Source of the DNA: Treponema sp.
GTDB taxonomy: Bacteria; Spirochaetota; Spirochaetia; Treponematales; Breznakiellaceae
Length of the DNA stretch: 41,988 nt
NCBI GenBank assembly: GCA_009787835.1
Contig: WQSN01000022.1
Span: 1 to 41,988, forward strand
Reading direction: 5' to 3'
Shown: piece by piece, positions 4,514 to 23,358 of the stretch
How the letters are laid out: every line of letters begins with the position of its first letter
How positions within the stretch are numbered: the stretch's first letter is position 1
The notes under the pieces: model-generated
Told to the model about the DNA's origin: nothing
Database searches by the model: none
The model's input: the letters and a program-made list of their open reading frames with translations, nothing else
Translations under genes and position numbers: made by a program

Positions 4514-6172
4514 ATGAAAAAACTTGCTGTGTTTTGGGCGGTTATGGCAATTGTCATTACATTGCTCATTGTAACAGGATGTAAAAAAGCAAGCGGCGCC
4601 GCCGCTTCAACCTCGGGCGGAAAAACCCCGATTACATTTACATTCTTTAACGCGGATGCGACAGAAGACCTGCCGTTTAACGATCCTGTAGCGAGGGAAA
4701 TCACCAGGCAAACCGGTGTAACCCTGAACATTGATCGCCCTGTAGGCGGCAATTATCAGGAAGTAGTGGGTCTCATGATTGCTTCAGGAGAACTTCCGGA
4801 TTTGATTTTCGCGAAAGGCGATCTCACCATGCTCATTGACGCAGGTATGGTAATTCCGCTGGATGATCTGATTGAAAGAAAGGGCAGCAACCTGAAAAAG
4901 TTATACGGTAATATGCTGGGCAGGTTGAAAAATACTACTGAGGATCCCCGGATTTACAATGTTGGAACCTATGCAGTGCATAATGGCATGTGGTCTACAG
5001 ACGGAATCATGCAGATTCAACACGCTGTTTTAAAGGAACTTGGCTATCCCAGAATGAAGACCCTGCAGGATTATGAGAACGCGATCAGAACTTATTTGCA
5101 GAGGAATCCAACCATAAATGGGCGCAGGACAATCGGTTTCTCCCTGTTGATTGACACATGGCAGTGGTATATCGACCTTTCCAATCCTTCATGTTTCCTT
5201 CTTGGATATCCTGATGACGGTCAATGGATCGTAGATCAGAATACATTGGAAGCCTATTACAAGTTCTTCCATCCACAGGCAAAAGAATATTACAAATGGC
5301 TGAACCGCATAAACGCGGAAGGGATTCTGGACCCTGAATCGTTCACACAGACAGAGGATGAATGGAGAGCAAAAATCGCGTCAGGCAGAGTCCTTGGCAT
5401 CGCGTATCCGCTCTGGGGTTATGAAGAATCCAGGCAGTCTCTTGTCGGCGACGGTATGCAGGAAAGAACATTCGCATATCTTCCCATAACGCTTAATGAG
5501 AATTATCAGGCCGCATCCCTTATGGATCCAGGATTCAGCGGAGGCTGGGGGGTAGCGATCACTACATCCTGCAAAGACCCGGAAAGAGCGTTTGAATTCC
5601 TTGACTGGATGGCGTCCGAAGAAGCGCAGGTACTTATTAACTGGGGAATTCAAGGCACCAATTACAATATTGTTAACGGAAAACGCGTAATGATTGAATC
5701 TGAAAGAAACGCTTCCGTATCAGATCCCAACTGGGGCAGAAGAACAGGCGTCGGCATTTATCAGCATCCATTCCCGATGTACGGCCGCGGCTTTATTGAT
5801 TCGACAAACAACTTTATAACCAGGGACAGCCCGGAAACCATCAGGGAAAGATATCTCGATGTTGAGGTGGAAACATTGGCGGCTTACGGAGCCGAAATGT
5901 GGACTGATCTTTTCCCGCCGACAGAATCACTTGGCGTTACGCGCCATGGCCAGGCCTGGCAGTACGCGCTGCCGCCAGAACTGAACTCGCTCATTTCCGA
6001 AGCGGATGACTATGTAAAGACCGCGTTATCCAACATGGTGCTTGGACGTCCTGCGGACTTTGACGGCGCGTGGGACAGAATGCTCACCCAACTGCGCCGC
6101 ATGGGCGTAGAAAACGCGCACTCGGCAATGACGCAGCTTGTCAGAGACAAGGTAAGGCTGTGGGGTAACTGA
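4514..6172 (+). CDS. Extracellular oligosaccharide-binding lipoprotein (LplA-like)
   Basis: The 552-residue product starts at an ATG with an AAGGAGATG ribosome binding site and has a lipoprotein signal peptide ending LIVTGC (Cys 23). The size and features such as NDPVAREITRQTGV and SGELPDLIFAKGD match the long LplA/YtcQ-type binding proteins that accompany LplB/YtcP permeases. The protein should be anchored outside the inner membrane and hand substrate to the two upstream permeases. The neighbouring cytoplasmic glycosidases suggest a branched plant oligosaccharide as substrate, but that is inference. The gene is convergent with the GH95 gene. Two hairpins follow its stop codon. Confidence 0.92.
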   Translation: MKKLAVFWAVMAIVITLLIVTGCKKASGAAASTSGGKTPITFTFFNADATEDLPFNDPVAREITRQTGVTLNIDRPVGGNYQEVVGLMIASGELPDLIFAKGDLTMLIDAGMVIPLDDLIERKGSNLKKLYGNMLGRLKNTTEDPRIYNVGTYAVHNGMWSTDGIMQIQHAVLKELGYPRMKTLQDYENAIRTYLQRNPTINGRRTIGFSLLIDTWQWYIDLSNPSCFLLGYPDDGQWIVDQNTLEAYYKFFHPQAKEYYKWLNRINAEGILDPESFTQTEDEWRAKIASGRVLGIAYPLWGYEESRQSLVGDGMQERTFAYLPITLNENYQAASLMDPGFSGGWGVAITTSCKDPERAFEFLDWMASEEAQVLINWGIQGTNYNIVNGKRVMIESERNASVSDPNWGRRTGVGIYQHPFPMYGRGFIDSTNNFITRDSPETIRERYLDVEVETLAAYGAEMWTDLFPPTESLGVTRHGQAWQYALPPELNSLISEADDYVKTALSNMVLGRPADFDGAWDRMLTQLRRMGVENAHSAMTQLVRDKVRLWGN

Positions 6173-6206
6173 TCCAATAAGAAATGCATGCCTAAAAAAT
6201 TTATTT

Positions 6207-6266
6207 GGGGGCCTGTCAGCGGCCAAAAGTAACGTGCATGCACGGCACTTTTGCCGCTGCCACCCC
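6207..6266. repeat. Large hairpin with a perfect palindrome in its loop
   Basis: AGCGGCCAAAAGT (about 6218-6230) pairs with ACTTTTGCCGCT (about 6247-6258) with one bulged base, and flanking G-rich and C-rich stretches extend the stem. The loop contains the perfect 12-bp palindrome CGTGCATGCACG at 6233-6244. It lies about 35 bases after the binding-protein stop and may end that transcript or protect its 3' end. Confidence 0.5.
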
Positions 6267-6330
6267 TCAAGTACATTATTAGGTATGAATTTCAAATTTC
6301 AACAAATCAAAAAAATTGTAAACTGAGGAT

Positions 6331-6370
6331 GTTCCAAATCTTTCGAACCGCAGGTTCGCGTTTTTGGAAT
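6331..6370. repeat. Interspersed palindromic repeat, family 1, copy A
   Basis: The outer stem is GTTCCAAA (6331-6338) with TTTGGAAT ending at 6370. The inner stem is CGAACC (6344-6349) with GGTTCG (6353-6358), with loop GCA. Clear copies are at 31029-31070 and 36428-36470. This copy sits between two convergent genes, four bases from the GH95 stop. Confidence 0.7.
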
Positions 6371-6374
6371 AGCT

Positions 6375-8750
6375 TCATATAATTTTTATATTTTCTTCAG
6401 GTTTCAGAAGTAACTTATGTTCATGATTAGGTTCCAGCAGTAAGATTGAAATTTCATTTTTGTTTTTATTTATGATTGTCAGTGATTTGATCTTTCCGTT
6501 TTGCCACACAAATTCCAGTTCCAGGTTACCTTTTGAGCGTACTCCTTTAATGCTGCCGCTTTGCCATTCGCGCGGAAGGGCGGGGAGAAGATCGATTATT
6601 ACATGGAAGGAGTTTTCATTGTATCGTATCCGGCTTTGAAGCAGCATTTGGGTGATGCCTGAAAGCGCGCCGAAATTTCCGTCTATCTGGAACGGAGGGC
6701 CGTTGTTAAATAGATTTGGAAGAGTATATTCACCCAGCAGGGTGCTGAGGCTTTTTCGCGCCGCTTCTCCGTTTTTAAGGCGGGCGTAAAAATTAATGAG
6801 CCATGCGAGGCTCCAGCCTGTGTGTGCGCCGTTAAATGACAGGCGTCGGTCTATTGTTTTTCGCGCGGCTTCAGCCAGTTGCGGGGTTTCATCTAACGTA
6901 ATACTGTCTCCGGGCCAGAGCGCCCACAGATGTGAAAAGTGACGGTGTCCCGGCTCAGCTTCTTCGTATTCTTCGTTCCATTCGCGGATTGTACCGTTAC
7001 TGTGAATGGCGGGAGATGGTATACGCTCCAGAACAGAAGCGAACTGTTTAGTGTCAGTATCCTGAATGTTTAAAATCTCCGCCGCGCGGACAGCGGACTG
7101 GAAAAGTTTGCGCAGAATTTGGTTGTCCATTTCGCAGCCCGCGCAAAGACTGACAGTTTCATTATTAATTATGAAACTGTTCTCAGGCGATGAAGAAGGA
7201 GAGACAATCAGGTAAGGTTCGCCGTTTTCATTTTTAATTTTACCTGGAACTAAAAAATCAACAAAAAAGACACAGGCTTCCCTTAATAAATAAAAATATT
7301 TATTAAGAAAATTTTTATCCTGCGTGTACTCATAATGTTCCCAGATGTGAATACAAAGCCATGCGGCGCCCAATGTCCAGTATGAAGCCGGTATCCAGTA
7401 ATCGCGCGGAGAAGCGTCCCCCCAAACATCCGTGTTGTGGTGAGCGGTAAAACCGCGGCAGCCGTACATGACTTCGGCTGTAACTTTCCCGTTAGGATAC
7501 ATCCGTTCTGTCAGGTCAAACAGGGGCTGTTCAGTTTCCAACAGATTGCACATGCCCGCAGGCCAGTAGTTCATCTGCGTATTAATATTGATGGTATAAT
7601 CACTGCCCCAGGGAGGATCAAAATACGGGTTCCATATACCCTGCAGGTTCGCAGGCAGGGACCGTCTGGCTCCGAAATTTTGATGATCCGGCGAAGGCTC
7701 TCCTTCGTATGAAGGAGAACTGCACGCCATTAGCAGATAACGGCAGAAATTAAAATAGCGCATAACATCTTCACCGTTATTTTTTATATCGAGCGTCATG
7801 CGGTTATACAAACCGGCGTGTTTGTCAATGTGCCGGGCCAGTAACTGTTCCCATATCCGCGTAACGCTCTCAGGACAAGGAATACCAAAGACGGTATTAT
7901 CTGCAACACCGGCGATACTTTTCATGCAGGCCTTAAAATAATCCGTCTCGCGAAAACCTGTGCGAATGTCAGCTAACAACAGGGCTTCATCCGCTTTCTC
8001 CACGGTAATAAAACCGCCGCAGCCCCGCCGCGTGCCGCCCTTTTGAATGACTTTTATCATGGCGCAAAAAGGAATGCCGCTGTCCCTTGTGATAAAAGCG
8101 CAATCTTCTGTATTTCCCCTGCGATCCAGAAAAACACCGCGATCAAGTGAAGCGCGAAAAGAAATTTTTCCTTGTTCAGGTTTCTGGTCAGCGTTGACTG
8201 CCGTGAAACGCAGCGCCAGCAAATCTTCAGAAACGGAGATAAAACATTCCCTTGTGAATAATGCGCCTTCATGTTCAAAAGAAATGGTGTGTAAAGCGCG
8301 CGATAAATCCAGTTCGCGGCGGTAATTTCGCACCCCTGTATCACAGCCAATCATGCCTGATGAAGAGACATCTTTAAATAGCGGGCCTGCTCTGGTTCCT
8401 GAAAACCGGTGACCAAACATTCCTTCAGGAGAAAAATCAATTAACAGTTCACCCGCACTCTGATAAACGCACTGAGTCGCCGGAATGCCGGAAAAAGTTT
8501 CAAGGCAGAGTTCTTCAGCTTCTGCGGCGCGGCCTTCGTCCAACAGCATTCTTACTTTGGGCAAAGCGCCGAGCGCACTGGGATTGTTACGATCCCTGTA
8601 CTGCCCCGACCAGATTGAATCCTCGTTTAACTGTATCTTCTCCCTGTAAGGCGATCCGAAGATCATTGCGCTTAACCTGCCGTTTCCAAGAGGCAAAGCT
8701 TCTTCCCATTTTTCGGCGGGTGAGTTAAAAAAAATTCTGTCAGATGTCAT
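6375..8750 (-). CDS. GH95 alpha-L-fucosidase (alternatively alpha-L-galactosidase), cytoplasmic
   Basis: The 791-residue protein has the GH95 N-terminal block (WEEALPLGNGRLSAMIFG, then QLNEDSIWSG) and the (alpha/alpha)6 catalytic part. Recognisable active-site regions are NINTQMNYWPA with Asn388 and Asn390, IREWNEEY with Glu590, and FQIDGNFG with Asp690. They match the places of the catalytic Asn, Glu and Asp of the Bifidobacterium AfcA enzyme. The family removes terminal alpha-1,2-fucose, for example from xyloglucan or host glycans, and some members act on alpha-L-galactose. No signal peptide is visible, so it should act on imported oligosaccharides. It starts six bases after the GH31 stop without a ribosome binding site, so translation is probably coupled. 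Confidence 0.9.
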   Translation of the reverse strand: MTSDRIFFNSPAEKWEEALPLGNGRLSAMIFGSPYREKIQLNEDSIWSGQYRDRNNPSALGALPKVRMLLDEGRAAEAEELCLETFSGIPATQCVYQSAGELLIDFSPEGMFGHRFSGTRAGPLFKDVSSSGMIGCDTGVRNYRRELDLSRALHTISFEHEGALFTRECFISVSEDLLALRFTAVNADQKPEQGKISFRASLDRGVFLDRRGNTEDCAFITRDSGIPFCAMIKVIQKGGTRRGCGGFITVEKADEALLLADIRTGFRETDYFKACMKSIAGVADNTVFGIPCPESVTRIWEQLLARHIDKHAGLYNRMTLDIKNNGEDVMRYFNFCRYLLMACSSPSYEGEPSPDHQNFGARRSLPANLQGIWNPYFDPPWGSDYTININTQMNYWPAGMCNLLETEQPLFDLTERMYPNGKVTAEVMYGCRGFTAHHNTDVWGDASPRDYWIPASYWTLGAAWLCIHIWEHYEYTQDKNFLNKYFYLLREACVFFVDFLVPGKIKNENGEPYLIVSPSSSPENSFIINNETVSLCAGCEMDNQILRKLFQSAVRAAEILNIQDTDTKQFASVLERIPSPAIHSNGTIREWNEEYEEAEPGHRHFSHLWALWPGDSITLDETPQLAEAARKTIDRRLSFNGAHTGWSLAWLINFYARLKNGEAARKSLSTLLGEYTLPNLFNNGPPFQIDGNFGALSGITQMLLQSRIRYNENSFHVIIDLLPALPREWQSGSIKGVRSKGNLELEFVWQNGKIKSLTIINKNKNEISILLLEPNHEHKLLLKPEENIKII

Positions 8751-8756
8751 GATAAT

Positions 8757-10778
8757 TTAAATCTTCGCGCCGGGTCTTACCAAAAGGGGCATACTGAAAA
8801 AACCGCATTTTTCCGTAATCCACCGGCCGCCCTTGACAGTTTCATCAGTCAGAAGGTTTTTCCATTCTCCTTCAGGAACATAATATGTAACTTCATCTTC
8901 GCTGAACACAGGCGCTACCAACAGATCCCCTCCCAGCATATACTGCCGGTCAAGATACGCGCAGGCGGGATCATCCGGGAATTCCAGAAACATCGCGCGA
9001 AGAACGGGAATGCCTTTTTCATGAGCTTCCATGCCCGCTTTCATGATGTACGGTTTTATACGATTTTTTAGTTCTGCGAAGAAACGGCAAACATCTGCGG
9101 ACTCTTCATCAACGCTCCACGGCACACGGTAAGAACTGCTGCCATGCAGCCGCGAATGGGATGATAATAAACCGAACGCAAGCCAGTGCTTAAACAATGC
9201 GGCGTTTGGTGTTCCTTCAAAACCTCCGATGTCATGGCTCCAGAAACCAAAACCGGAAAGTCCAAGCGAGAGTCCGCCTCTTAATGTTTCAGCCATCGCT
9301 TCAAAAGTTGATTCGCAGTCGCCGCCCCAGTGCAGCGGATAACGCTGGCTGCCTGATGTGGCGGATCTCGCGAACAGGCACGCTTCACCTTTTCCGCGTT
9401 TTCTTTCCAGCAATTCAAATACCGCTTTGTTGTACAGATATGTATAATAATTATGATGACGATGTGAATCACCGCCGTCAAAATAATTTGCATTCTCCGG
9501 AATTCTCTCGCCGAAGTCAGTCTTGAAACAATCAACTCCCATATCCAGCAATTTTTCCAGATGGTTTTGATACCACTTAACAGCCTGCGGATTGGAAAAA
9601 TCCACAATTGACAATCCCGCCTGCCAGTCATCGGTTTGATAAACAGAACCGTCGCGGTTCATAAGAAGATATCCGCCTTTCTTCCCTTCTTCAAAAAGCG
9701 GAGAACGCTGCGCGATATACGGATTGATCCAAACGCAGATTTTTAAACCTTTTGCTTTTATTCTCGACAGCATACCCGCGGGATCGGGGAATGTTTCTTT
9801 ATCCCATGTAAAATCGCACCAGTTAAAACCTTTCATCCAGAAGCAGTCAAAATGAAAAACAGACAGAGGTATTTTTCTCTCTTCCATTCCATTAATGAAA
9901 CTCATAACTGTTTTTTCATCGTATGAAGTTGTAAATGATGTTGAAAGCCACAAACCGTAACTCCATTCAGGCAGAAGAGCGGGCCTTCCTGTAAGCGCGG
10001 TGTAATGCTCCAGAATTGTTTTTGGCGAGGGACCGTAAATGATAAAGTACTCCAGAACTTCACCCGTTACGCAAAATTGCACGCGGGTAGTTTTTTCGCT
10101 TCCGACCTCAAAAGAAACCTTATCGGGAGTATTTATAAATACTCCGTAACCTTTATTTGTCATATAAAAGGGAATATTTTTGTATGCCTGTTCGCTTGCG
10201 GTACCGCCGTCCGCGTTCCAGATATCGATTGTTTGCCCGTTTTTTACAAGCGGTCCGAAACGTTCTCCGAGCCCGTATACAAGTTCGCCCACAGAAAGAG
10301 AAAGCTCATCTTTTAAATATGCTGTTTTAGGTTTATGCGGACCCCATCCCTGACTTACCATATACCCAAGAGATTTGCCCTGATTTTTGGTCAGTATTTT
10401 TTCTTCGCCGTAAAAAGTATTATTCCATCTATCGCCGCGATCAACTGATACTGAAAGAGCGCCGCTTTCCAGAACAGATTTGTTTTCCGTTATGCGAATA
10501 ACAGGTTTAAAATCGGAATCAATCTCCAGCGGGAAATGAGGTCCCTTATCCTGAGTCCCTTCAAAATGCGTAATCCTTACCTTTATTATGTTTTTCAGCG
10601 GACTGGAATAACGAACCGTTAAAAGCTGCATATTAAGCGTATCGCCCCGGTGCCGCACAGGTCTTTCAGGCGCGTACACAACAAGTTCATCTCCCTGCTG
10701 CTCAACCTCAGCGGCGCAGCCTGCGAAGTGCGCCTGAATGCCGTCTTTTATCAGCCAGTATCCGTTTGTAAATTTCAT
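8757..10778 (-). CDS. GH31 alpha-xylosidase (YicI-like), lacking the usual C-terminal domain
   Basis: The 673-residue product matches YicI-type alpha-xylosidases. It has the nucleophile motif KTDFGERIP (Asp421), the acid/base in HWGGDCES (Asp487), and the downstream GFGFWSHDIGGFEG block. It should remove alpha-1,6-xylose from the non-reducing end of xyloglucan oligosaccharides such as isoprimeverose. There is no signal peptide, so it acts in the cytoplasm. The start is set by a CAGGAGAC ribosome binding site. The protein ends at LLVRPGAKI, where YicI (772 residues) goes on with roughly another hundred residues of beta-sandwich, so that domain is missing here. It is the first gene of a two-gene operon with the GH95 enzyme. 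Confidence 0.92.
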   Translation of the reverse strand: MKFTNGYWLIKDGIQAHFAGCAAEVEQQGDELVVYAPERPVRHRGDTLNMQLLTVRYSSPLKNIIKVRITHFEGTQDKGPHFPLEIDSDFKPVIRITENKSVLESGALSVSVDRGDRWNNTFYGEEKILTKNQGKSLGYMVSQGWGPHKPKTAYLKDELSLSVGELVYGLGERFGPLVKNGQTIDIWNADGGTASEQAYKNIPFYMTNKGYGVFINTPDKVSFEVGSEKTTRVQFCVTGEVLEYFIIYGPSPKTILEHYTALTGRPALLPEWSYGLWLSTSFTTSYDEKTVMSFINGMEERKIPLSVFHFDCFWMKGFNWCDFTWDKETFPDPAGMLSRIKAKGLKICVWINPYIAQRSPLFEEGKKGGYLLMNRDGSVYQTDDWQAGLSIVDFSNPQAVKWYQNHLEKLLDMGVDCFKTDFGERIPENANYFDGGDSHRHHNYYTYLYNKAVFELLERKRGKGEACLFARSATSGSQRYPLHWGGDCESTFEAMAETLRGGLSLGLSGFGFWSHDIGGFEGTPNAALFKHWLAFGLLSSHSRLHGSSSYRVPWSVDEESADVCRFFAELKNRIKPYIMKAGMEAHEKGIPVLRAMFLEFPDDPACAYLDRQYMLGGDLLVAPVFSEDEVTYYVPEGEWKNLLTDETVKGGRWITEKCGFFSMPLLVRPGAKI

Positions 10779-10797
10779 TTTTAGTCTCCTGTGTTAT

Positions 10798-10825
10798 ATA
10801 ATAACATTTTAAACTGAATATACAA
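10798..10825 (-). promoter_or_regulatory. Probable promoter of the GH31-GH95 operon
   Basis: On the minus strand, TTGTAT (10825-10820), a 16-nt spacer and TATTAT (10803-10798) precede the ribosome binding site of the GH31 gene. It is placed by consensus only. Confidence 0.4.
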
Positions 10826-10889
10826 CGGTTCATTACAGGACTAACAGATTTTTCACCAATGCAATTTTACAGGAGAAAAAAAACAGACT

Positions 10890-11279
10890 CTAAATAAAAA
10901 CATCATCTTCATCTTCATCTTCTGTTTTATCATCGGATAACGGCAAATCAGTGTAGGAATTCAACACCATGCCAATTATCCGTGAATTTATGCCGGACTG
11001 TATCAAAAGCGCCGCTTCTTTTTTGATTACTTTAATGAGATGCGAATATTCATCGGTATCCTGCGCTATAATGTTAGAAAGTATTTTATTGATAATCTCC
11101 GAATCGGTTCCATCTATTACCAGACTAATTCCGTATTGGAATATATCCCTCGCGTTAACTTTATCAGTTTCCAGTTCGTCTTCCAGAGACAATAACCCTT
11201 CCCTGCGTGCCTTATCGGCCAACGCAAGAGCCTGTTTAGAAAAAACCTGATATTGCCAGATAAATTCGCTGCGATTCAT
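10890..11279 (-). CDS. Soluble protein resembling the cytoplasmic FliG-binding loop of MotA
   Basis: The 129-residue protein has no membrane segment. Residues 15-70 resemble the cytoplasmic loop of MotA stators: ADKARREGLLSLEDE followed by FQYGISLVIDGTDSEII. In E. coli MotA this loop carries Arg90 and Glu98, which contact the rotor protein FliG. Here Arg25 and Glu33 keep that spacing (R, eight residues, E). The tail is very acidic (DDKTEDEDEDD). All four MotA membrane helices and the proton-channel part are absent, so it cannot be a stator itself. Its ATG overlaps the end of the preceding FliG-like gene by four bases, so the two are translated together. It may bind the rotor or its partner, but the function is unknown. 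Confidence 0.65.
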   Translation of the reverse strand: MNRSEFIWQYQVFSKQALALADKARREGLLSLEDELETDKVNARDIFQYGISLVIDGTDSEIINKILSNIIAQDTDEYSHLIKVIKKEAALLIQSGINSRIIGMVLNSYTDLPLSDDKTEDEDEDDVFI

Positions 11280-11767
11280 GGTATTAACTCTCCTTCCGCC
11301 GCTATTATTATTTCAGCGGTACTTTCCAGATGATGTATAACAGCAATGATTTTCTCCTGCGCCTTTTCAACGTCCTTCAAACGTACCGGCCCCATATACT
11401 CCATATCTTCTTTTAACATACATGCCGCGCGTTTGGACATATTTTTAAATATCTTGTTCTGTACTTCCATACTCTCACTCTTGAGCGCCAGCGCCAACTC
11501 CTGGGAATCCACTTCGCGCATTATCTTCTGAATGGAGCGGTCATCTATTTTTAAAATTATATCAAATTTTACAGGTAAAAAATTATCAAGAATGTAGTGT
11601 GCGCCGGGACATATAACTTTGGCGGTTATCCACGATGCACCTTCCAGATGCAGACTGTTTATTGTATCGCAATAACTGGCAGCATCAGCCAAAATACTTA
11701 TAGAGAATTTTTCGATTGTTTTATGGCGTCCGCATACAGTTACAACAACATTATTATCATCGCTCAT
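11276..11767 (-). CDS. Truncated FliG-like protein carrying only the rotor C-terminal domain
   Basis: The 163-residue reading starts at the ATG at 11767, chosen because GGAGGTG lies six bases upstream. A longer frame reaching 11827 has no such site. Residues 68-150 match the FliG C-terminal domain: FDIILKIDDRSIQKIMREVD, then NMSKRAA and GPVRL. The charged residues that E. coli FliG uses against MotA (Lys264, Arg281, Asp288, Asp289, Arg297) appear as Lys96, Arg113, Glu120, Asp121 and Arg129. The first 65 residues match nothing I recognise. FliG's N-terminal FliF-binding and middle domains are absent. It is far shorter than FliG (about 330-345 residues), so it is a separate protein, not the main rotor subunit. 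It is co-transcribed with the MotA-loop-like gene. Confidence 0.75.
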   Translation of the reverse strand: MSDDNNVVVTVCGRHKTIEKFSISILADAASYCDTINSLHLEGASWITAKVICPGAHYILDNFLPVKFDIILKIDDRSIQKIMREVDSQELALALKSESMEVQNKIFKNMSKRAACMLKEDMEYMGPVRLKDVEKAQEKIIAVIHHLESTAEIIIAAEGELIP

Positions 11768-11798
11768 ATAACACCTCCTGCATGTCTTTGTACTGGTT

Positions 11799-11827
11799 AT
11801 TATATTATGTTTCATCTTTATATACAA
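11799..11827 (-). promoter_or_regulatory. Sigma-70-type promoter of the FliG-like/MotA-like operon
   Basis: Minus strand TTGTAT (11827-11822), a 17-nt spacer and TATAAT (11804-11799). The predicted transcript start gives a short leader holding the GGAGGTG site. It stands back to back with the hprK promoter, 24 bases away. Confidence 0.55.
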
Positions 11828-11851
11828 TAATTTTTAGGAGGCATTCCCTGA

Positions 11852-11880
11852 TTGCATGGTTTAAAAATATACTATAAAAT
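11852..11880 (+). promoter_or_regulatory. Sigma-70-type promoter of hprK, predicting a leaderless mRNA
   Basis: TTGCAT at 11852-11857, a 17-nt spacer and TAAAAT at 11875-11880, then six bases to the ATG. No ribosome binding site is present. Confidence 0.5.
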
Positions 11881-11886
11881 ACTGGC

Positions 11887-12876
11887 ATGGCGGACAGGGT
11901 TTTTACAGTACTCGACCTTATCGACCTGGATCTCAAGGAACACAATTCATTGAATCTTCGCTGTATCGGCGGCAGAAAAGGTCTTGTGAGAGTTATTGAC
12001 ATCCCCGACCTGAACCGCCCCATGGGCGCGATTATGGGTTTCTTCGAGGATTTCGCCTATCAAAGAATTCAACTTTTTGGCCGGGGGGAGGTTTCCTATT
12101 TAAGGCGGCTTGAAAACGCGAACGAAACAAAAACAATCGAAGAAATGTTCGCCTATCCCATGCCCTGCTGTATCTTTACCCATAATTTGTACCCTCATAA
12201 AGATTTTTTTGAAGTAGCTGAAAAAACCCAATGCCCCATTTTACAGACGGATCTGGGATCCGCAGATTTTACCGCGAGAATTATGCGGATACTTTCACGG
12301 GTTTTCTCTCCGCGTCAGATTGTTCATGGCGTACTTGTTGAAGTATACGGTCTTGGTATTCTGTTACAGGGGGATTCGGGCGTAGGCAAAAGTGAAACCG
12401 CACTGGAGCTAATTCACCGGGGCCACAGGCTGGTAGCGGATGATGTTGTAGAGCTTAACTGCATTTACGGAAATACGCTGATGGGCGCGGGAGCGAATAA
12501 AATCATAGGGCATCATATGGAAATCCGCGGACCGGGCATCATCAATATAACGCATCTGTTCGGGGTAAGGGCCATCAGGGACCGCAAAGAAATCCAGCTT
12601 GTCGTTGAACTTGAAGATTGGAATTCATCAAAAAATTATGACAGGCTTGGAATGGAAAATCCTACTGTTGAATTATTAGGAGTTACAATACCCAGATTAA
12701 CAGTGCCGGTAAAACCGGGCAGGAATATACCAATCATTATTGAAACCGCCGCAATGAATGAAAGGTTAAAATCAATGGGGTATCACGCCGCCAAGGAATT
12801 TAATAAAAACATCCTCAGATGGATTGAAAGCGGCTCTACCCGTTCAGTCTTCTTTGGAGACGATGATATTATTTAA
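11887..12876 (+). CDS. hprK: HPr kinase/phosphorylase
   Basis: The 329-residue protein has the usual two-part layout: an N-terminal domain (about 1-130) and a C-terminal catalytic domain with the Walker A loop GDSGVGKS (162-169), then the family signature around HHMEIRGPGIINI. It phosphorylates and dephosphorylates a serine of HPr, linking metabolic state to regulation. The next gene is HPr itself, with its Ser46 target present. No sugar-specific PTS enzyme II is in the window, so the pair may be purely regulatory here, as in other treponemes with incomplete PTS. It heads a six-gene operon that includes a nitrogen-type two-component system and lexA. The ATG has no ribosome binding site and lies six bases from a -10 box. 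Confidence 0.96.
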   Translation: MADRVFTVLDLIDLDLKEHNSLNLRCIGGRKGLVRVIDIPDLNRPMGAIMGFFEDFAYQRIQLFGRGEVSYLRRLENANETKTIEEMFAYPMPCCIFTHNLYPHKDFFEVAEKTQCPILQTDLGSADFTARIMRILSRVFSPRQIVHGVLVEVYGLGILLQGDSGVGKSETALELIHRGHRLVADDVVELNCIYGNTLMGAGANKIIGHHMEIRGPGIINITHLFGVRAIRDRKEIQLVVELEDWNSSKNYDRLGMENPTVELLGVTIPRLTVPVKPGRNIPIIIETAAMNERLKSMGYHAAKEFNKNILRWIESGSTRSVFFGDDDII

Positions 12877-12887
12877 GGAACGTATTA

Positions 12888-13154
12888 ATGATAGAAAAAA
12901 CAGTAAAAGTTATAAACAGGGCGGGTATTCACGCCAGACCTTCGGCATTACTTGTTCAAACAACAAAAAACTTTAAATCATCGATATATTTTGAAAAAAA
13001 CCAGGATCGCATTAACGCAAAATCAATCATGGGTATAATAACTTTGGGCGCGGGTTACGGAGCGGAAGTAAAATTAATCGCCGAGGGAGAGGATGAAAAA
13101 GAAGCGGTAGAAGCCCTGGTAAAACTTTTTGAGTCCAAGTTCGAAGAAGAGTAA
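12888..13154 (+). CDS. ptsH: Phosphocarrier protein HPr
   Basis: The 88-residue protein carries both HPr phosphorylation sites: His15 in NRAGIHARPSA, used by PTS enzyme I, and Ser46 in INAKSIMGI, used by HPr kinase. It is cytoplasmic. With HprK encoded 11 bases upstream, Ser46 regulation is the clearest role. Whether the PTS phosphotransfer through His15 is active depends on an enzyme I not seen here. A GGAACG sequence precedes the ATG. The nine-base gap to the next gene shows a continuous operon. Confidence 0.96.
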   Translation: MIEKTVKVINRAGIHARPSALLVQTTKNFKSSIYFEKNQDRINAKSIMGIITLGAGYGAEVKLIAEGEDEKEAVEALVKLFESKFEEE

Positions 13155-13163
13155 GGAGCGCTT

Positions 13164-14945
13164 TTGAAAAAAGCCAAAGCCCGTCCTGAATATTCAATAA
13201 TCAGCGTGCGGTTTATGATACTTATCTATGCGCTTCTTTGCATTCTTACCATTCTTTTTTCCCGTGATTTTTTTATTGATACCCTTTATGAAGGAAAAGT
13301 GCCGGACCGTTTAAGCCTGATTGTATTCTTTACCGTTCCATCGGTATTAATTGTTGTCCTCGCGATTTCATTTGTCGGCCTTCTCGCGGATATTGTATCC
13401 AGCCGCCCGGGAAGCAGATTTCAGGCAAGGCTTTTGGCGTATTTTATAGTAATAGTCATTTTCGCGGCAGCGCCGGTAATAGTTATGACAAGCGCGGCAT
13501 TAAATGAAATTGTCCGGTTCTGGCAGAGTATAAACACTTCTTCCGCTACACGGGCGGCAAACAGTTTTGTAGCGGAGAATTACACGCTGCATCTGGAACG
13601 TTTTGAAAATATCCTGAAAGAAAACAATTTTACGCGTCCTGATACAGGATTAAACCTGCCGCAGGATATTGCCGCCGTGCAGGTCTTCCGCAGCGCGGAC
13701 GGTGATTGGACAGAAAATTCATTCTCAGGCGACGGGCGGTTTTCCCTCGCTTATCCGCCATCGCTGGAAAGCGGATTTACAACAAGGGAACTGCCAAGGG
13801 ACAGGGATACAATCCGTTATGTGCAAAGACCGGCGCAAAATACGCTGATTGTAATTAATTATAACCTTGGCGGTGAATTTGACGCGGGAAGGAACGCTCT
13901 GGAAAATCAGACGGAACGTTTTGAAACAATTAATACATTAAGAGCCAACATCCGCCCGCTTATCATATACTATTACGGGGTATTTTTTCTTCCCACGCTG
14001 CTTATGACAGTAATTGTCGCCATTTCATTTACGCGGCGCATAACTCACCCGATTGTGGATTTAACAGAGGCGACACGGCGCGTCGCGGACGGGGATTTTT
14101 CAATCCAGATACTCTCCCGGCGCAATGACGAGCTTGGTCTTTTAATCCGTTCGTTTAACGCCATGGTGCAGGACCTGGAAAAATCCCGCGCCGCTTTGGT
14201 AAAACATGAAACAATTTCAATCTGGCAGAATATGGCGCAGCAGCTCGCGCATGAGATAAAAAATCCGCTAACGCCGATAAAACTTTCCGCGGAACGTGTG
14301 CTGCGCAGGTGGCGCAATGACCCCGGGAACATCAGCGATATTCTTGAAAATTCCATGATGGCGATAATTCAGGAAACAGAAGGGCTTTCCGCCCTGTTAA
14401 ACGAATTCAGAACATTGTCAAAACCGATGGAACCGTCGCAGTCATGGACCAGCCTTAATGCCTGCATTGAGGAAGTAATCAGCACATATTCAAACACATA
14501 TCCGCGCGTGGAATTCAACACAGAGTACGCGAAAACGGATATACAAATAAAAATTGATAAACACCGCCTGTCGCAAATACTGACAAATCTTTTTATCAAT
14601 GCGATTGACGCCATGAGCGGAAAAGGCATAATAGAAATACGAACAGACCTTGTCAAAAAAAGGGAAGTTTGTTATTGTAGGATAAGCGTTAAAGATTCAG
14701 GCATTGGTATTGGCAAACAGGAAGGTCAACTCGTCTTTACTCCGTATTTCACTACAAAAGAATCCGGCACAGGTCTTGGGCTTCCAATCGTTGAAAGAAT
14801 TGTAAACGATCACGGCGGTTCTATCTGGTTTGATTCGGCGGAAAACATGGGATCAACATTTTATATAGATTTACCTGCAGAACAATCTGCGGTCAGCCAT
14901 CGTACCGAAAGTCCGCCTGATGAAGGTTCTCTCGCGGAGAGTTAA
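13164..14945 (+). CDS. NtrY-like membrane sensor histidine kinase
   Basis: The 593-residue protein starts at TTG with an AAGGAG site just upstream. It has three hydrophobic segments before residue 115, an extracytoplasmic region of about 160 residues, another membrane segment near 275-298, a HAMP linker, the phosphorylation box AHEIKNPLTP with His363, and a C-terminal ATPase domain with DSGIGI and GTGLGLPI. This layout is that of NtrY kinases. It should phosphorylate the regulator encoded next, two bases after its stop. NtrY-NtrX pairs respond to nitrogen, redox or envelope signals in other bacteria. The signal here is unknown. Its place behind HprK-HPr suggests coupling to carbon status, which is inference. 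Confidence 0.92.
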   Translation: MKKAKARPEYSIISVRFMILIYALLCILTILFSRDFFIDTLYEGKVPDRLSLIVFFTVPSVLIVVLAISFVGLLADIVSSRPGSRFQARLLAYFIVIVIFAAAPVIVMTSAALNEIVRFWQSINTSSATRAANSFVAENYTLHLERFENILKENNFTRPDTGLNLPQDIAAVQVFRSADGDWTENSFSGDGRFSLAYPPSLESGFTTRELPRDRDTIRYVQRPAQNTLIVINYNLGGEFDAGRNALENQTERFETINTLRANIRPLIIYYYGVFFLPTLLMTVIVAISFTRRITHPIVDLTEATRRVADGDFSIQILSRRNDELGLLIRSFNAMVQDLEKSRAALVKHETISIWQNMAQQLAHEIKNPLTPIKLSAERVLRRWRNDPGNISDILENSMMAIIQETEGLSALLNEFRTLSKPMEPSQSWTSLNACIEEVISTYSNTYPRVEFNTEYAKTDIQIKIDKHRLSQILTNLFINAIDAMSGKGIIEIRTDLVKKREVCYCRISVKDSGIGIGKQEGQLVFTPYFTTKESGTGLGLPIVERIVNDHGGSIWFDSAENMGSTFYIDLPAEQSAVSHRTESPPDEGSLAES

Positions 14946-14947
14946 TA

Positions 14948-16351
14948 ATGTCAAAAATTTTAATTATAGATGATGAGCCAGGAATCAGAAAAACACTCGC
15001 GTCAATTCTTGAAGATGAAAAATTCAGGGTTTTTACCTGCGAAGACGCGCTGTCCGGCATTGAAATATTAAAACGCGAACCAATTGATTTAATTTTTCTT
15101 GATGTACTGCTTCCGAAACTGGGCGGCATTGAAGCGCTGGAAAGAATACGGAAAGAATGGCCGATGACAGAAATAATCATGATTTCGGGCCATGCAAATA
15201 TCGACATGGCGGTCCGCGCTGTAAAATTGGGAGTCTTTGATTTCCTTGAAAAACCGCTTTCTCTGGAGAAGGTTCTTACAGTATGCAGGAACGCGCTTGC
15301 AATAAAAAAACTCCGTGAAGAAAACAATAATCTAAAAAAGATAAGCCGGATTGCAAGCGAGGACATAATCGGAACAAGCGCCATTATCAGAAATATCAGG
15401 GAAACCGTAAAACAGGCAGCCGAAAGCGATGCCCGTATTTTAATAACCGGCGAAAACGGCGCGGGAAAAGAAGTTATCGCAAGAGCGATTCATCAATGTT
15501 CATCTCGCGCAAACAGTCCGTTTATAGACGTTAACTGCGCGGCGATACCGGAAACGCTGATAGAAAGCGAACTATTCGGCCATGAAAGAGGCGCATTTAC
15601 AGACGCGGTATCTACACGCAAGGGGCGGTTTGAACTGGCGCACGGAGGAACTCTCTTCCTTGATGAGATAGGCGACATGAGCCTTTCAGCGCAGGCTAAA
15701 GTGCTGCGCGTTATTCAGGAACAGAAAATCGAACGTCTTGGCAGTGAAAAAACAATTGAGACCGATGTGCGCATAATAGCCGCGACCAATCAGGATCTGG
15801 AAAAAGCCTGCGAAGAAGGCCGCTTCAGGCGGGATCTTTTTTTCAGATTGAATGTTATCCCCATTCATGCCCCGCCGCTGCGGGAACGATCTGAAGATAT
15901 AATTATGCTGCTGCACAATTTCCTGAATACGCTTAATAAGAATTTAATACTGGAAACCGACGCTCAGGAACTTCTTGCTTCCCATGACTGGCCGGGAAAT
16001 GTAAGGGAGCTGAAAAATCTGGCGGAGAGGATCGCCGTAATGCACCAGGGTGATTACATTACAGGATCCGAACTGCAAAAACTGCTGAACAACAATAAAA
16101 AAAGCAAAAGAAAAACATCTTCCAATGACGCATCTCTGGCAGGATCGCAGACAGGTCTGCCTGAAGGCATTCTGGAAAAAAATTACAATGAAGCAAAGGA
16201 AAATTTTGAAAAATTTTATCTGGAGTTCCAACTTTCAAAAAATGGTGGTATAATAACAAGAACGGCGGAAGCAATCGGCATTTATCCAAGTAACCTTCAC
16301 GCCAAACTCAGAAAACACAGCATATCAACTGCAAATGTAAAAGAAGAATAG
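14948..16351 (+). CDS. NtrX/NtrC-like sigma-54-dependent response regulator
   Basis: The 467-residue protein has a receiver domain with phospho-acceptor Asp52 (IFLDVLLPK), an AAA+ domain with Walker A GENGAGKE (168-175), and a C-terminal Fis-type helix-turn-helix (TRTAEAIGIYPSNLHAKLRK). The sigma-54 contact loop is GAFTDA (215-220), not the canonical GAFTGA. That change occurs in NtrX-type proteins and may alter sigma-54 activation. It is paired with the upstream NtrY-like kinase. It should drive or modulate transcription of target genes, which are not identifiable here. No sigma-54 promoter was recognised in the window. Confidence 0.93.
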   Translation: MSKILIIDDEPGIRKTLASILEDEKFRVFTCEDALSGIEILKREPIDLIFLDVLLPKLGGIEALERIRKEWPMTEIIMISGHANIDMAVRAVKLGVFDFLEKPLSLEKVLTVCRNALAIKKLREENNNLKKISRIASEDIIGTSAIIRNIRETVKQAAESDARILITGENGAGKEVIARAIHQCSSRANSPFIDVNCAAIPETLIESELFGHERGAFTDAVSTRKGRFELAHGGTLFLDEIGDMSLSAQAKVLRVIQEQKIERLGSEKTIETDVRIIAATNQDLEKACEEGRFRRDLFFRLNVIPIHAPPLRERSEDIIMLLHNFLNTLNKNLILETDAQELLASHDWPGNVRELKNLAERIAVMHQGDYITGSELQKLLNNNKKSKRKTSSNDASLAGSQTGLPEGILEKNYNEAKENFEKFYLEFQLSKNGGIITRTAEAIGIYPSNLHAKLRKHSISTANVKEE

Positions 16352-20900: not shown

Positions 20901-22085
20901 ATATTCGGCTATAATATCATTTGACCAGCTTCCGTCAGGCTGATACTCAGGCACAAGTTCCTTAAACCTCTGAATATATTCCTGTTTGCCGGGCAATCCA
21001 AACATCTCAATGGCTTTCTGATTGCAGTCTATAACATTAAAATCCTTATTCCAGAAGTTAACGGCGAAGGGAGTGGCATTAATCATAATCTGAGTACGCT
21101 CATCCGCCTTGGCTTTTTCAATGGAAATACGCATCAGAATCCATATAAGCAGAGCCGCGAAAAACGCGCCCAGTACCGAAAGAATTGCGGCAAGATCCCT
21201 TGTGCTGTGAAAATAATAATTTCCGGGCGTAACAACTCCCATGTACCAGCCGTTTTCCAGCCTATGAACAAAAACAATGGATTCGGTGCCGCGGTAATCG
21301 GTAGTTGTAATTTCCGAGAGTACGCCTTTAAGCCTGATCTCTTCGGTAAATTTACTGATCCCGCTCACAACCTCGCCGATTGGCATTCCAATCATCGAAG
21401 GTTCAGGATGCGCGATTATTGTCAGATTCTGACTCAGCAAAAATCCGTAACCGTCTTTGACAAATTGCGTACTAACAACATGTTCCCTGATTCTGTCGAT
21501 CAGCACATCAAGGCCGATAACTGCAAGCGGTTTGCCTTCGCCGTCCTGAAGAAGGCGTGAAAATGTTATGGAGATTTCGTTTGTAAATATGTTAACATAA
21601 GGCTGAGTAATTCCTATATCGCCCGCGGCGTAAACAGCCGCCGAATACCAAAGACGGCTTGCCGGATCATAATCATACGGCGCAATCCAGTCCCTGTTGC
21701 CTGTCAGAAAAACATCATCATAAACAGGGAATAAACCGAAAAATCCGGTAGTTCCAATCATCCGCTCATTGACGCCTGAATGCAAAAAATCGGTGATGAA
21801 AGTGAGATACTCATGCACATCTTTTTCTGAAAGTCCGTTCAATATCATATCGCGGATTGTTTCGGAAATGCTTCCCAGCAGCGTTTCAGGTTCAAGTAAA
21901 TCGGATTTAATGTTAACTTCTGTATATGATATGGCGTTATTCGCGTATCTGCGTAGATGATCGCGTTCCGTATTGCTGATAAAAATATAACTTGATATTA
22001 CCATCAGCGCGAATGCGATTAACACCAAAAAAACCTGACCGTACTTGACCAGAAATTCCTGTGTTATCCGCATTATGGAACGCAT
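17994..22085 (-). CDS. Large hybrid sensor histidine kinase (Cache-PAS-GAF-PAS-kinase-receiver-HPt)
   Basis: The product is about 1363 residues. In order: a membrane segment (about 15-35), an extracytoplasmic Cache-type sensor to about 295, a second membrane segment (about 298-318), a PAS domain, a GAF domain (about 460-620), a second PAS domain, a kinase core with His782 in SHEIRTPMNA and ATPase motif GTGLGMNI, a receiver with Asp1093 in MDHMMPRMDG, and an HPt domain with His1227 in NIHAMKSALA. A full internal phosphorelay is therefore present. The ATG at 22085 shares a base with the upstream stop (TGATG) and has AGGCAGG before it, which decides the start over a TTG one codon earlier. It is coupled to the HD-GYP regulator, a likely output partner. 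Confidence 0.93.
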   Translation of the reverse strand: MRSIMRITQEFLVKYGQVFLVLIAFALMVISSYIFISNTERDHLRRYANNAISYTEVNIKSDLLEPETLLGSISETIRDMILNGLSEKDVHEYLTFITDFLHSGVNERMIGTTGFFGLFPVYDDVFLTGNRDWIAPYDYDPASRLWYSAAVYAAGDIGITQPYVNIFTNEISITFSRLLQDGEGKPLAVIGLDVLIDRIREHVVSTQFVKDGYGFLLSQNLTIIAHPEPSMIGMPIGEVVSGISKFTEEIRLKGVLSEITTTDYRGTESIVFVHRLENGWYMGVVTPGNYYFHSTRDLAAILSVLGAFFAALLIWILMRISIEKAKADERTQIMINATPFAVNFWNKDFNVIDCNQKAIEMFGLPGKQEYIQRFKELVPEYQPDGSWSNDIIAEYTSNVMNKGFARLEWTQQKPNGEPVPCEVTLNRVKYKDEYIIVGYTRDMREQNKMLKEIAQRTQLLNTVNSAATLLLSSKSADSFETLILKSFELLGTCLNIDRVQIWCNETIENETCFVLRYQWLSRYGRECRPVPAGLHFPNTLKDEWNKLFLQGEFINAPVSQLSQEARNFFGYYELKSIVIIPMFLDDYFWGLFSISDCRLEHTFSNDEISILTSAGLMISSAINRNIQILETRDAEERTQIMIDAAPLCAIFWDKNLKLIDCNQEAVKMFDLSNKQEFIDKFNFLSPEYQPDGMLSSEKGSLLVRKALDEGYSRFEWMHQKSDGESIPADIICIRVRHKDEYTVTEYIRDLREQKAMISEMRKAEVAEESSKAKSNFLARMSHEIRTPMNAILGIAEIQLQNESLAQSSKDAMERIYSSGDLLLGIINDILDLSKIEAGKLELLLDQYDIASLIHDTVQLNIMRYESKPVEFSLHVDENLPVLLVGDELRIKQILNNVLSNAFKYTEEGTVNLTVSVEQIDGDENSNIALTFLISDSGQGMTPEQVEKLGSEYARFNMEANRKTQGTGLGMNITMSLIQLMNGNISIQSTPGLGSSFKIQLPQQFTTVGTIGKELADNLMLLNFNNVSKIRTVQLKREFMPYGRVLVVDDVETNLYVARGLLAPYGLSMDTALSGFDAIEKIREGSHYDIIFMDHMMPRMDGIETTKIIREMGYTHPIVALTANALAGQAEMFIKSGFDDFISKPIDSRQLNSILNKLIRDKQSSKIIEEARGQKNNLYTAEQSGSVNSQLAEVFIRDAKKASAILEAVCVNKCRRNDDLALFIVNIHAMKSALANIGESDLSSLAAKLEQAGRDQDKELIFSELPSFIEQLSGVIHKFEGIVNSAESAQEAEGNSPYLKEKLLAIQGACAAYNKKAAREALTELKQKTWIPAARELLSAIAEYLLHSEFDEIAKAIDDYIKNF

Positions 22086-23104
22086 CAATCGCCTGCCTTT
22101 ACGGCCTTAAATAAATCCCTGACTTCATAGAAAACCTGCGCAATTCTTGGATCATACTGTGTGCCGGCGTTTTCCATGATGGTTTTAACAGCGTCTTCAT
22201 GCGCAAACGGTTTCTTGTACGGTCTGTCTGAAACAAGCGCGTCATACACATCGGCGATTGCCATAATGCGCCCCTGTAAAGGGATTTCTTCTCCCTTTAG
22301 TCCGTGCGGGTATCCTTTCCCGTCCCAGCGCTCATGATGACAGCCCGCGAACAATCTGGCGTTACGCAAAAATTCTCCTTCGCCGGTGCGGGCGATAATT
22401 TCATCAATTATCCTTTCCCCTTCCTGCGCGTGGGTTTTCATCACCTCGTATTCTGCGTCTGTAAGCCTGTCAGGTTTATTAACAATGATATCAGTTATTG
22501 ATATCTTGCCAAGATCGTGCATACGCGCGGATGAAACAATTTTCTCCACATCCCAATCGCGGATTTCATTGACATATATTCCGCGATCCTTCATTCCGCT
22601 TATCAGAATTTTTATATATATTGAAGTGCGTTCAATATGCCCGCCTGTTCCCTTATCGCGGTTTTCTACCATGTCCGCGAGAACAGATACAATACTGTTC
22701 TGCAGCCGGTGAAGCTGCGCTGTCCGCTCGCGGATTATCTCGTCAATATCCAGATGAGTTTTTATCCTGTTAAGAAGAACAGGTCCGGAAAACGGTTTCG
22801 TAACAAAATCAATCGCGCCCATCTCAAAGCCGCGGACTTCCACTTCCTCATCGGTGCGGCCTGTCAAAAACATTACGGGTATATCAGACCATTTTTCCCT
22901 GGACTTTAAAATACTCAGCGCTTCAAATCCGTCCATTTCAGGCATTTCAATATCCAGTAAAATCAAATCGGGGGAGACTTTATTCAAAAGCCTGAACATG
23001 GTAGAAGCGGACGGCATGGTCATTACACGGTAGTGATCATCAAGCGCGGACTCGGCCATGGATAAATTTGTATCGCTGTCATCAACAATAAATATAGTTT
23101 TCAT
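22085..23104 (-). CDS. Response regulator with HD-GYP cyclic-di-GMP phosphodiesterase domain (RpfG-like)
   Basis: The 339-residue protein joins a receiver domain (phospho-acceptor Asp51 in LLDIEMPEMDG) to an HD-GYP domain: the HD pair at His196-Asp197 in RMHDLGKI and the GYP motif in GKGYPHGLKG. HD-GYP proteins degrade cyclic-di-GMP to pGpG or GMP. Phosphorylation by a partner kinase, most simply the hybrid kinase translated right after it, would control that activity. In spirochaetes cyclic-di-GMP affects motility and host adaptation, so a link to the upstream chemoreceptor is plausible. AAGG lies a few bases before the ATG. Confidence 0.94.
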   Translation of the reverse strand: MKTIFIVDDSDTNLSMAESALDDHYRVMTMPSASTMFRLLNKVSPDLILLDIEMPEMDGFEALSILKSREKWSDIPVMFLTGRTDEEVEVRGFEMGAIDFVTKPFSGPVLLNRIKTHLDIDEIIRERTAQLHRLQNSIVSVLADMVENRDKGTGGHIERTSIYIKILISGMKDRGIYVNEIRDWDVEKIVSSARMHDLGKISITDIIVNKPDRLTDAEYEVMKTHAQEGERIIDEIIARTGEGEFLRNARLFAGCHHERWDGKGYPHGLKGEEIPLQGRIMAIADVYDALVSDRPYKKPFAHEDAVKTIMENAGTQYDPRIAQVFYEVRDLFKAVKAGD

Positions 23105-23217
23105 CAGTACCTTAACTTAATATATTAATAATAATTCCAGTATTTTAACGCATATTCCGCAGATACCAGGAATATTATATTCCAGTTTGCGGGATTCGTC
23201 AATTTTATTATTCGTGA

Positions 23218-23288
23218 GCCTGGTTTAATACCGCGCTGCACTGGCGGCAGTAAAAATAAAACTTTCAACTGAATGGCATTAAACCAGA
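23218..23288. repeat. Inverted repeat between the chemoreceptor and HD-GYP genes
   Basis: CTGGTTTAAT (from about 23219) and ATTAAACCAG (ending about 23287) are exact inverted copies about 50 bases apart, in a 254-base gap between two genes read on the minus strand. It could be a transcription attenuator or a binding site. No T-run fits a classical terminator. Confidence 0.4.
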
Positions 23289-23358
23289 CGATATAATTTA
23301 TTTCCTTACAAATGAGCCTCCGCGGAAATTAAAAAGTTTTTTAGCTTTAACAGCGAAA

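What the first reader, a model, noticed from the sequence alone, without database searches (positions are those of the whole stretch)
10890..11767. Soluble mini rotor/stator pair: FliG C-terminal domain plus MotA cytoplasmic loop in one operon
Two overlapping genes encode a FliG-like protein with only the torque domain and a MotA-like protein with only the FliG-contact loop. Neither has membrane segments. The charged residues known from E. coli to form the electrostatic rotor-stator contact are kept on both sides: Lys96, Arg113, Glu120, Asp121, Arg129 in the FliG-like protein and Arg25, Glu33 in the MotA-like one. A pair that keeps the interface but not the motor suggests a regulator, such as a brake, decoy or assembly factor for periplasmic flagella, or a repurposed module. 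They sit back to back with hprK, hinting at a link between motility and carbon status.
Basis: partly seen in the sequence, partly recalled or inferred. Interest (0 to 1): 0.82.

Follow-up and report, generated by a model that had tools for sequence, protein, structure and literature searches.

The report
Membrane-free flagellar rotor–stator protein pair
A spirochaete carries two overlapping genes for loose, membrane-free copies of the two protein surfaces that drive its flagellar motor, and relatives fuse and shuffle the same two pieces; the two proteins likely bind each other and would act as a soluble clutch or docking pair, a use of the motor contact that our searches did not find described.

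The parts
11276..11767 (-). Gene A, 163 aa: N-terminal beta-beta-alpha-beta domain plus FliG C-terminal torque domain
   Evidence: AGGAGG at 11774-11779, six bases upstream of ATG
11570..11767 (-). N-terminal domain of A (residues 1-66), no family found; conserved YC..IN.L and W
   Evidence: matched in 7 of 39 genus genomes
11303..11569 (-). FliG_C domain of A (residues 67-155)
11429..11431 (-). A Arg113, counterpart of FliG Arg281 (salt bridge to MotA Glu98)
   Evidence: role from PMC6680979
11405..11407 (-). A Asp121, counterpart of FliG Asp289 (salt bridge to MotA Arg90)
   Evidence: role from PMC6680979
11276..11279 (-). ATGA overlap of the stop of A with the start of B (coupled translation inferred)
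   Evidence: sequence; the same 4-base overlap in G013, G007 and G035
10890..11279 (-). Gene B, 129 aa: MotA cytoplasmic domain without transmembrane helices
11055..11237 (-). [quoted passage not shown]
10941..11024 (-). B residues 86-113, counterpart of the MotA C-terminal helix after TM4
   Evidence: weak by sequence alone (6.9 bits)
11205..11207 (-). B Arg25, counterpart of MotA Arg90
   Evidence: 115 of 120 in A1
11181..11183 (-). B Glu33, counterpart of MotA Glu98
   Evidence: 108 of 120 in A1, 10 more Asp

Best explanation
Two overlapping genes encode a membrane-free FliG torque domain (A) and a membrane-free MotA cytoplasmic domain (B) that likely bind each other through the kept rotor-stator salt bridges and are predicted to compete for the MotA-FliG contact in the flagellar motor, as a soluble clutch or decoy. 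Shown: domain identity, absence of membrane helices, selection, repeated pairing and fusion, retention of the contact residues. Inferred: B grips FliG_C as MotA does. In the solved complex FliG_C is held between two neighbouring MotA cytoplasmic domains (PMC11302681), so B would act as a dimer, or as the tandem B-B found in six proteins (one of them in the window's own genome) and the triple in one. Free B would then occupy FliG_C on the rotor and free A would occupy MotA on the stator, slowing or uncoupling the motor; the A-B complex would be the neutral store. Untested: binding, location, the signal read by the N-terminal domain of A, and any effect on swimming.
For: Domain identity and fold. 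26 of 96 true MotA match the B profile in exactly two pieces, around TM3-TM4. Purifying selection: window against G013, A dN 0.122 / dS 0.65, B 0.202 / 1.18. Pair kept with different flanks in 6 loci (window, G013, G007, G035, G010, G271). 14 of 57 A-type database proteins sit on contigs whose exact length also appears among 120 listed B-type proteins, three of the 14 being the window, G013 and G007; shifted lengths give a mean of 1.6 and at most 5. FliG_C fused to, or within 5 kb of, a soluble B module in 15 of 35 loci, 6 of them fused; for scale, FliG_C occurs 4 times in the whole own genome. Single-chain MotA-FliG_C proteins in spirochaete families f18, f31, f39, f49 and f52. In 22 loci with both halves: Arg25 in at least one module in 20, Glu33 in 20, Arg113 in 19, Asp or Glu121 in 20 (Asp 17), Glu120 in 21; Lys96 in 16, Arg129 in 12. 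Six proteins with two strong tandem B modules, one with three, fitting the pincer grip. FliM-core-like genes (by eye) or FliM-N-like motifs in some B loci. Precedent: YcgR touches both MotA and FliG; EpsE is thought to act on FliG.
Against: No binding or motility data. Only 12 of 39 genus genomes, many incomplete, hold a soluble B module at 62.8 bits or more, so it is unlikely to be required for flagella. Apart from a chemotaxis receptor near the G013 pair, no flagellar or chemotaxis gene was recognised around the six pairs by eye. In fused modules the contact residues decay: Arg25 17 of 27, Glu33 12 of 27. G027 has lost both on its one B module; G271, G202 and G157 have lost Arg113; G288 and G064 have lost Asp121. 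In G021 the A and B homologues lie on different contigs. Retention may be inherited: true MotA and FliG have these residues nearly invariant. The 22 loci are not independent (L227-L229 are near-copies) and were chosen for holding both halves. The fold match is not fully independent, as the predictor was trained on solved structures.
Confidence: 0.42

Rival explanations
1. Exapted docking pair: the FliG_C and MotA contact surfaces have become a soluble protein-protein interaction code that joins scaffold proteins and no longer touches the motor.
For: Modules are shuffled onto LRR, Sel1/TPR, MORN and DUF4116 scaffolds, and more weakly matched ones onto Sel1/ankyrin. Contact residues drift in those members. 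None of 19 window genes scanned is a flagellar structural gene (genes from 31455 on were not scanned). No signal or enzyme domain in A or B.
Against: Stand-alone pairs and most single-chain fusions keep the motor salt-bridge residues, so cross-binding to the cell's own FliG and MotA would be hard to avoid. Other switch-complex parts (FliG_M, FliM, FliM-like motif) recur in some of the loci.
Confidence: 0.32
2. Auxiliary soluble switch complex: A, B and FliG and FliM paralogues build a cytoplasmic assembly related to the C-ring but not anchored to the M-ring, perhaps reading CheY-P.
For: Own genome has a second FliG (435 aa, FliG_M and FliG_C; its only FliG_N hit is 0.0014, under the cut-off) followed by a second FliM (425 aa frame), 1.6 kb from a B-B-MORN gene. 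B proteins on the T. saccharophilum contig carry EIDxLL motifs like the FliM N terminus.
Against: In the five other pair loci no FliM-N-like motif was found. No oligomer evidence.
Confidence: 0.12
3. Assembly or stoichiometry factor: A and B act as chaperone-like caps that hold surplus FliG or MotA before motor assembly.
For: Soluble mimics of both partner surfaces; sporadic distribution as expected of an accessory factor.
Against: No link to fli or mot operons seen by eye; no chaperone-like feature beyond the mimicry.
Confidence: 0.09
4. Non-functional remnants of fliG and motA duplications.
For: G020 has a B copy with stops inside and G028 an A copy split over two frames.
Against: dN/dS about 0.2 for both genes, a MotA-type fold, and 191 B-like proteins in the database (the search admits only 71-226 aa).
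Confidence: 0.03

Closest known systems
FliG C-terminal domain (PF01706) of the flagellar switch
   Same: Sequence, fold and torque-helix charges of residues 67-155 of A
   Different: A shows no FliG_N (FliF anchor, recalled) or FliG_M (FliM contact) and carries a different N-terminal domain; its branches are much longer than those of the near-invariant FliG of the genus
MotA stator protein (as in 8ucs, MotAB bound to FliG_C)
   Different: No transmembrane helices, so no MotB channel, ion path or membrane anchor; own branch against 42 sampled MotA
YcgR-type flagellar brakes
   Same: Proposed action at the MotA-FliG contact; YcgR touches both sides
   Different: YcgR is a PilZ c-di-GMP effector; A and B have no PilZ hit
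EpsE clutch of B. subtilis
   Same: Soluble protein thought to disable FliG
   Different: EpsE resembles glycosyltransferases; no such hit in A or B
Engineered C. sporogenes MotA-FliG fusion used for 8ucs (figure legend)
   Same: MotA and FliG_C in one chain
   Different: Here the fusion is natural and lacks the MotA membrane part

Membership tests
FliG (flagellar switch protein) | FliG_C torque domain | tested here: met
   7.6e-33
FliG (flagellar switch protein) | FliG_N and FliG_M domains for FliF and FliM contact; equivalog score | tested here: not met
   only FliG_C above cut-off; TIGR00207 121.5 bits against a cut-off of 226.7
MotA (stator protein) | cytoplasmic FliG-contact domain | tested here: met
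MotA (stator protein) | four transmembrane helices | tested here: not met
   highest 19-residue hydropathy 1.14; matched pieces skip TM3-TM4
MotA (stator protein) | partner MotB | not tested
   no MotB search was run
MotA (stator protein) | equivalog score cut-off | tested here: not met
   best 41.9 bits against 394
YcgR-type brake | PilZ domain | tested here: not met
   no PilZ hit up to E 1
Flagellar clutch or brake, by function | binds FliG or MotA and lowers torque | not testable with these tools
   needs binding and swimming assays

The most novel reading that the evidence does not exclude
The moving rotor-stator contact of the flagellar motor has been lifted off the membrane and turned into a soluble docking code: MotA and FliG torque surfaces occur as a gene pair, as a single chain, in tandem and on LRR, Sel1, TPR, MORN and ankyrin scaffolds, a separate kind of protein-interaction toolkit in spirochaetes.
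Probability: 0.35. Interest if true: 0.86.

Novelty: new variant of a known kind. Interest (0 to 1): 0.73.

Why it matters
The MotA-FliG contact is studied mostly inside the membrane-bound motor, where it is moving and hard to purify. Here nature supplies both halves as small soluble proteins, as natural single-chain fusions and as tandem MotA domains matching the two-MotA pincer of the solved complex. If they bind, they give a direct handle on how FliG_C is gripped, and may show a motor control that uses copies of the motor's own surfaces instead of a second-messenger receptor. If they do not act on the motor, they show how the contact of a rotary machine becomes a general docking module.

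Full report

It is a maintained pair. dN/dS against the nearest relative is about 0.19 (A) and 0.17 (B); most other comparisons are saturated at synonymous sites. The adjacent pair occurs in six loci: the window, G013, G007, G035, G010 and G271. Flanks differ and none of the other five has hprK in the 9-16 kb fetched. Four of the six have the same 4-base overlap. A further genome, G021, has A and B homologues on different contigs. Database proteins agree: 191 B-like proteins (120 listed; the search admits only 71-226 aa, so full MotA is shut out by length) and 57 A-like proteins that I aligned out of 120 listed (694 found; those dropped are mostly FliG pieces covering only the torque domain).

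It belongs to a wider family. In the genus, 12 of 39 genomes have B modules at 62.8 bits or more, while true MotA reach at most 51.4; three longer proteins with weaker B matches (20-44 bits, in G022, G033 and G027) were not counted. One of the 12, G020, is interrupted by stops. Other genera of the family and a second family (including the T. saccharophilum contig) have them too. Five of 59 relatives have no FliG_C match; four of these have no B match and one, G046, a weak 24-bit one. Of 43 B-bearing open frames examined, 25 are short single modules, six carry two tandem modules at E under 1e-10 and one carries three. Pfam confirms fusions to MORN, Sel1 with TPR, LRR, DUF4116, FliG_M and FliG_C, and of weakly matched modules to Sel1 with ankyrin. 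Outside the order, seven of eight fetched loci, in five spirochaete families, encode a single chain with a MotA domain followed by FliG_C; the eighth, L230, has a B module alone. Six of the seven have no stretch over 1.6 in hydropathy; L234 has one. A similar 258-aa protein is filed under a Desulfobacterales MAG, which may be a binning error.

Trees. With seven of 48 rows left out, 41 soluble modules and 42 true MotA (a pick from 96, TM parts cut out) separate with support 100/99. With all 48, one 880-aa protein falls among MotA. Adding eleven phylum-wide sequences keeps soluble and stator proteins on two sides of a branch but with support of only 63/96. So an early split is likely within Treponematales and open for the phylum.

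Contact residues. MotA Arg90 and Glu98 pair with FliG Asp289 and Arg281 (PMC6680979, passages). The spacing of eight residues is the same in B (25, 33) and A (113, 121). Among 120 B proteins Arg25 is kept in 115 and Glu33 in 108 (10 more Asp); among 57 A proteins Arg113 in 52 and Asp121 in 54, whereas Arg129 is kept in 41. Across 22 loci with both halves (one FliG_C per locus, any B module counted) the four bridge residues are kept in 19-20 (Asp or Glu counted at 121), Glu120 in 21, Lys96 in 16 and Arg129 in 12. Against this, fused modules drift: Arg25 17 of 27, Glu33 12 of 27.

How it likely works. In the solved complex FliG_C is sandwiched between two neighbouring MotA cytoplasmic domains (PMC11302681, passages). 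That makes the tandem B proteins telling: a pincer in one chain. I infer that B, as a dimer or tandem, grips FliG_C, and that A offers FliG_C. The simplest result is an A-B complex whose free halves compete at the motor, B on the rotor and A on the stator, as YcgR (PMC12713396, abstract; PMC11800159, passages) and EpsE (PMC3000366, passages) are thought to do by other means. The rival is a docking pair that has left the motor. Residue retention in pairs and fusions favours the first; scaffold shuffling and residue drift favour the second. No call tests binding.

Novelty. Searches (listings only; open-access library; one search was mostly off-topic) listed no paper whose title or abstract start describes a soluble MotA family or a natural MotA-FliG_C fusion. 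Subscription papers and preprints were not searched. Where the B-like proteins have a source name, it is hypothetical protein, flagellar motor component MotA or chemotaxis protein MotA (one cut-off name aside), so some database names already point to MotA.

Noticed in passing
L211 (G107:C12), 7085-8023 and 8401-8937; neighbours 11104-11946 and 13827-14681: Soluble MotA-module proteins end in EIDALL / EIDELL motifs like the FliM N terminus (recalled as the CheY-P site), and two neighbours carry the same motif. In control loci the pattern was in 50 of 7690 frames, by eye mostly FliM/FliY N termini, four rows being the same contig again.
   Followed up: partly
L065 (G000:C35) 6480-9058; also L085, L090: A second FliG (FliG_M and FliG_C, no FliG_N above cut-off) directly followed by a second FliM, close to a B-B-MORN gene in the window's own genome.
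   Followed up: partly
L071 (G013:C57) 7317-11184: A B+Sel1+TPR protein with a FliM-N-like motif, followed by a protein that looks by eye like a FliM core.
   Followed up: no
L091 (G008:C4) 7224-8837: FliG_C fused behind eleven DUF4116 repeats, without a MotA module.
   Followed up: no
L203 (G064:C1) 4602-15189: Two similar 1027-aa B-module genes (DUF4116 repeats confirmed in one) beside a FliG_C-LRR-B-B gene in a one-contig genome, by recalled length a cultured species.
   Followed up: partly
L087 (G015:C2) 6780-7928: A protein with two copies of the A-type unit (N-terminal domain plus FliG_C), the second degenerate, with no B module in the 15 kb fetched.
   Followed up: no
window 22085-25536: A response regulator with an HD domain and a chemotaxis receptor lie 10 kb away; homologues sit near the pair in G010, G271 (HD type) and G013 (receptor), but not consistently.
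   Followed up: partly
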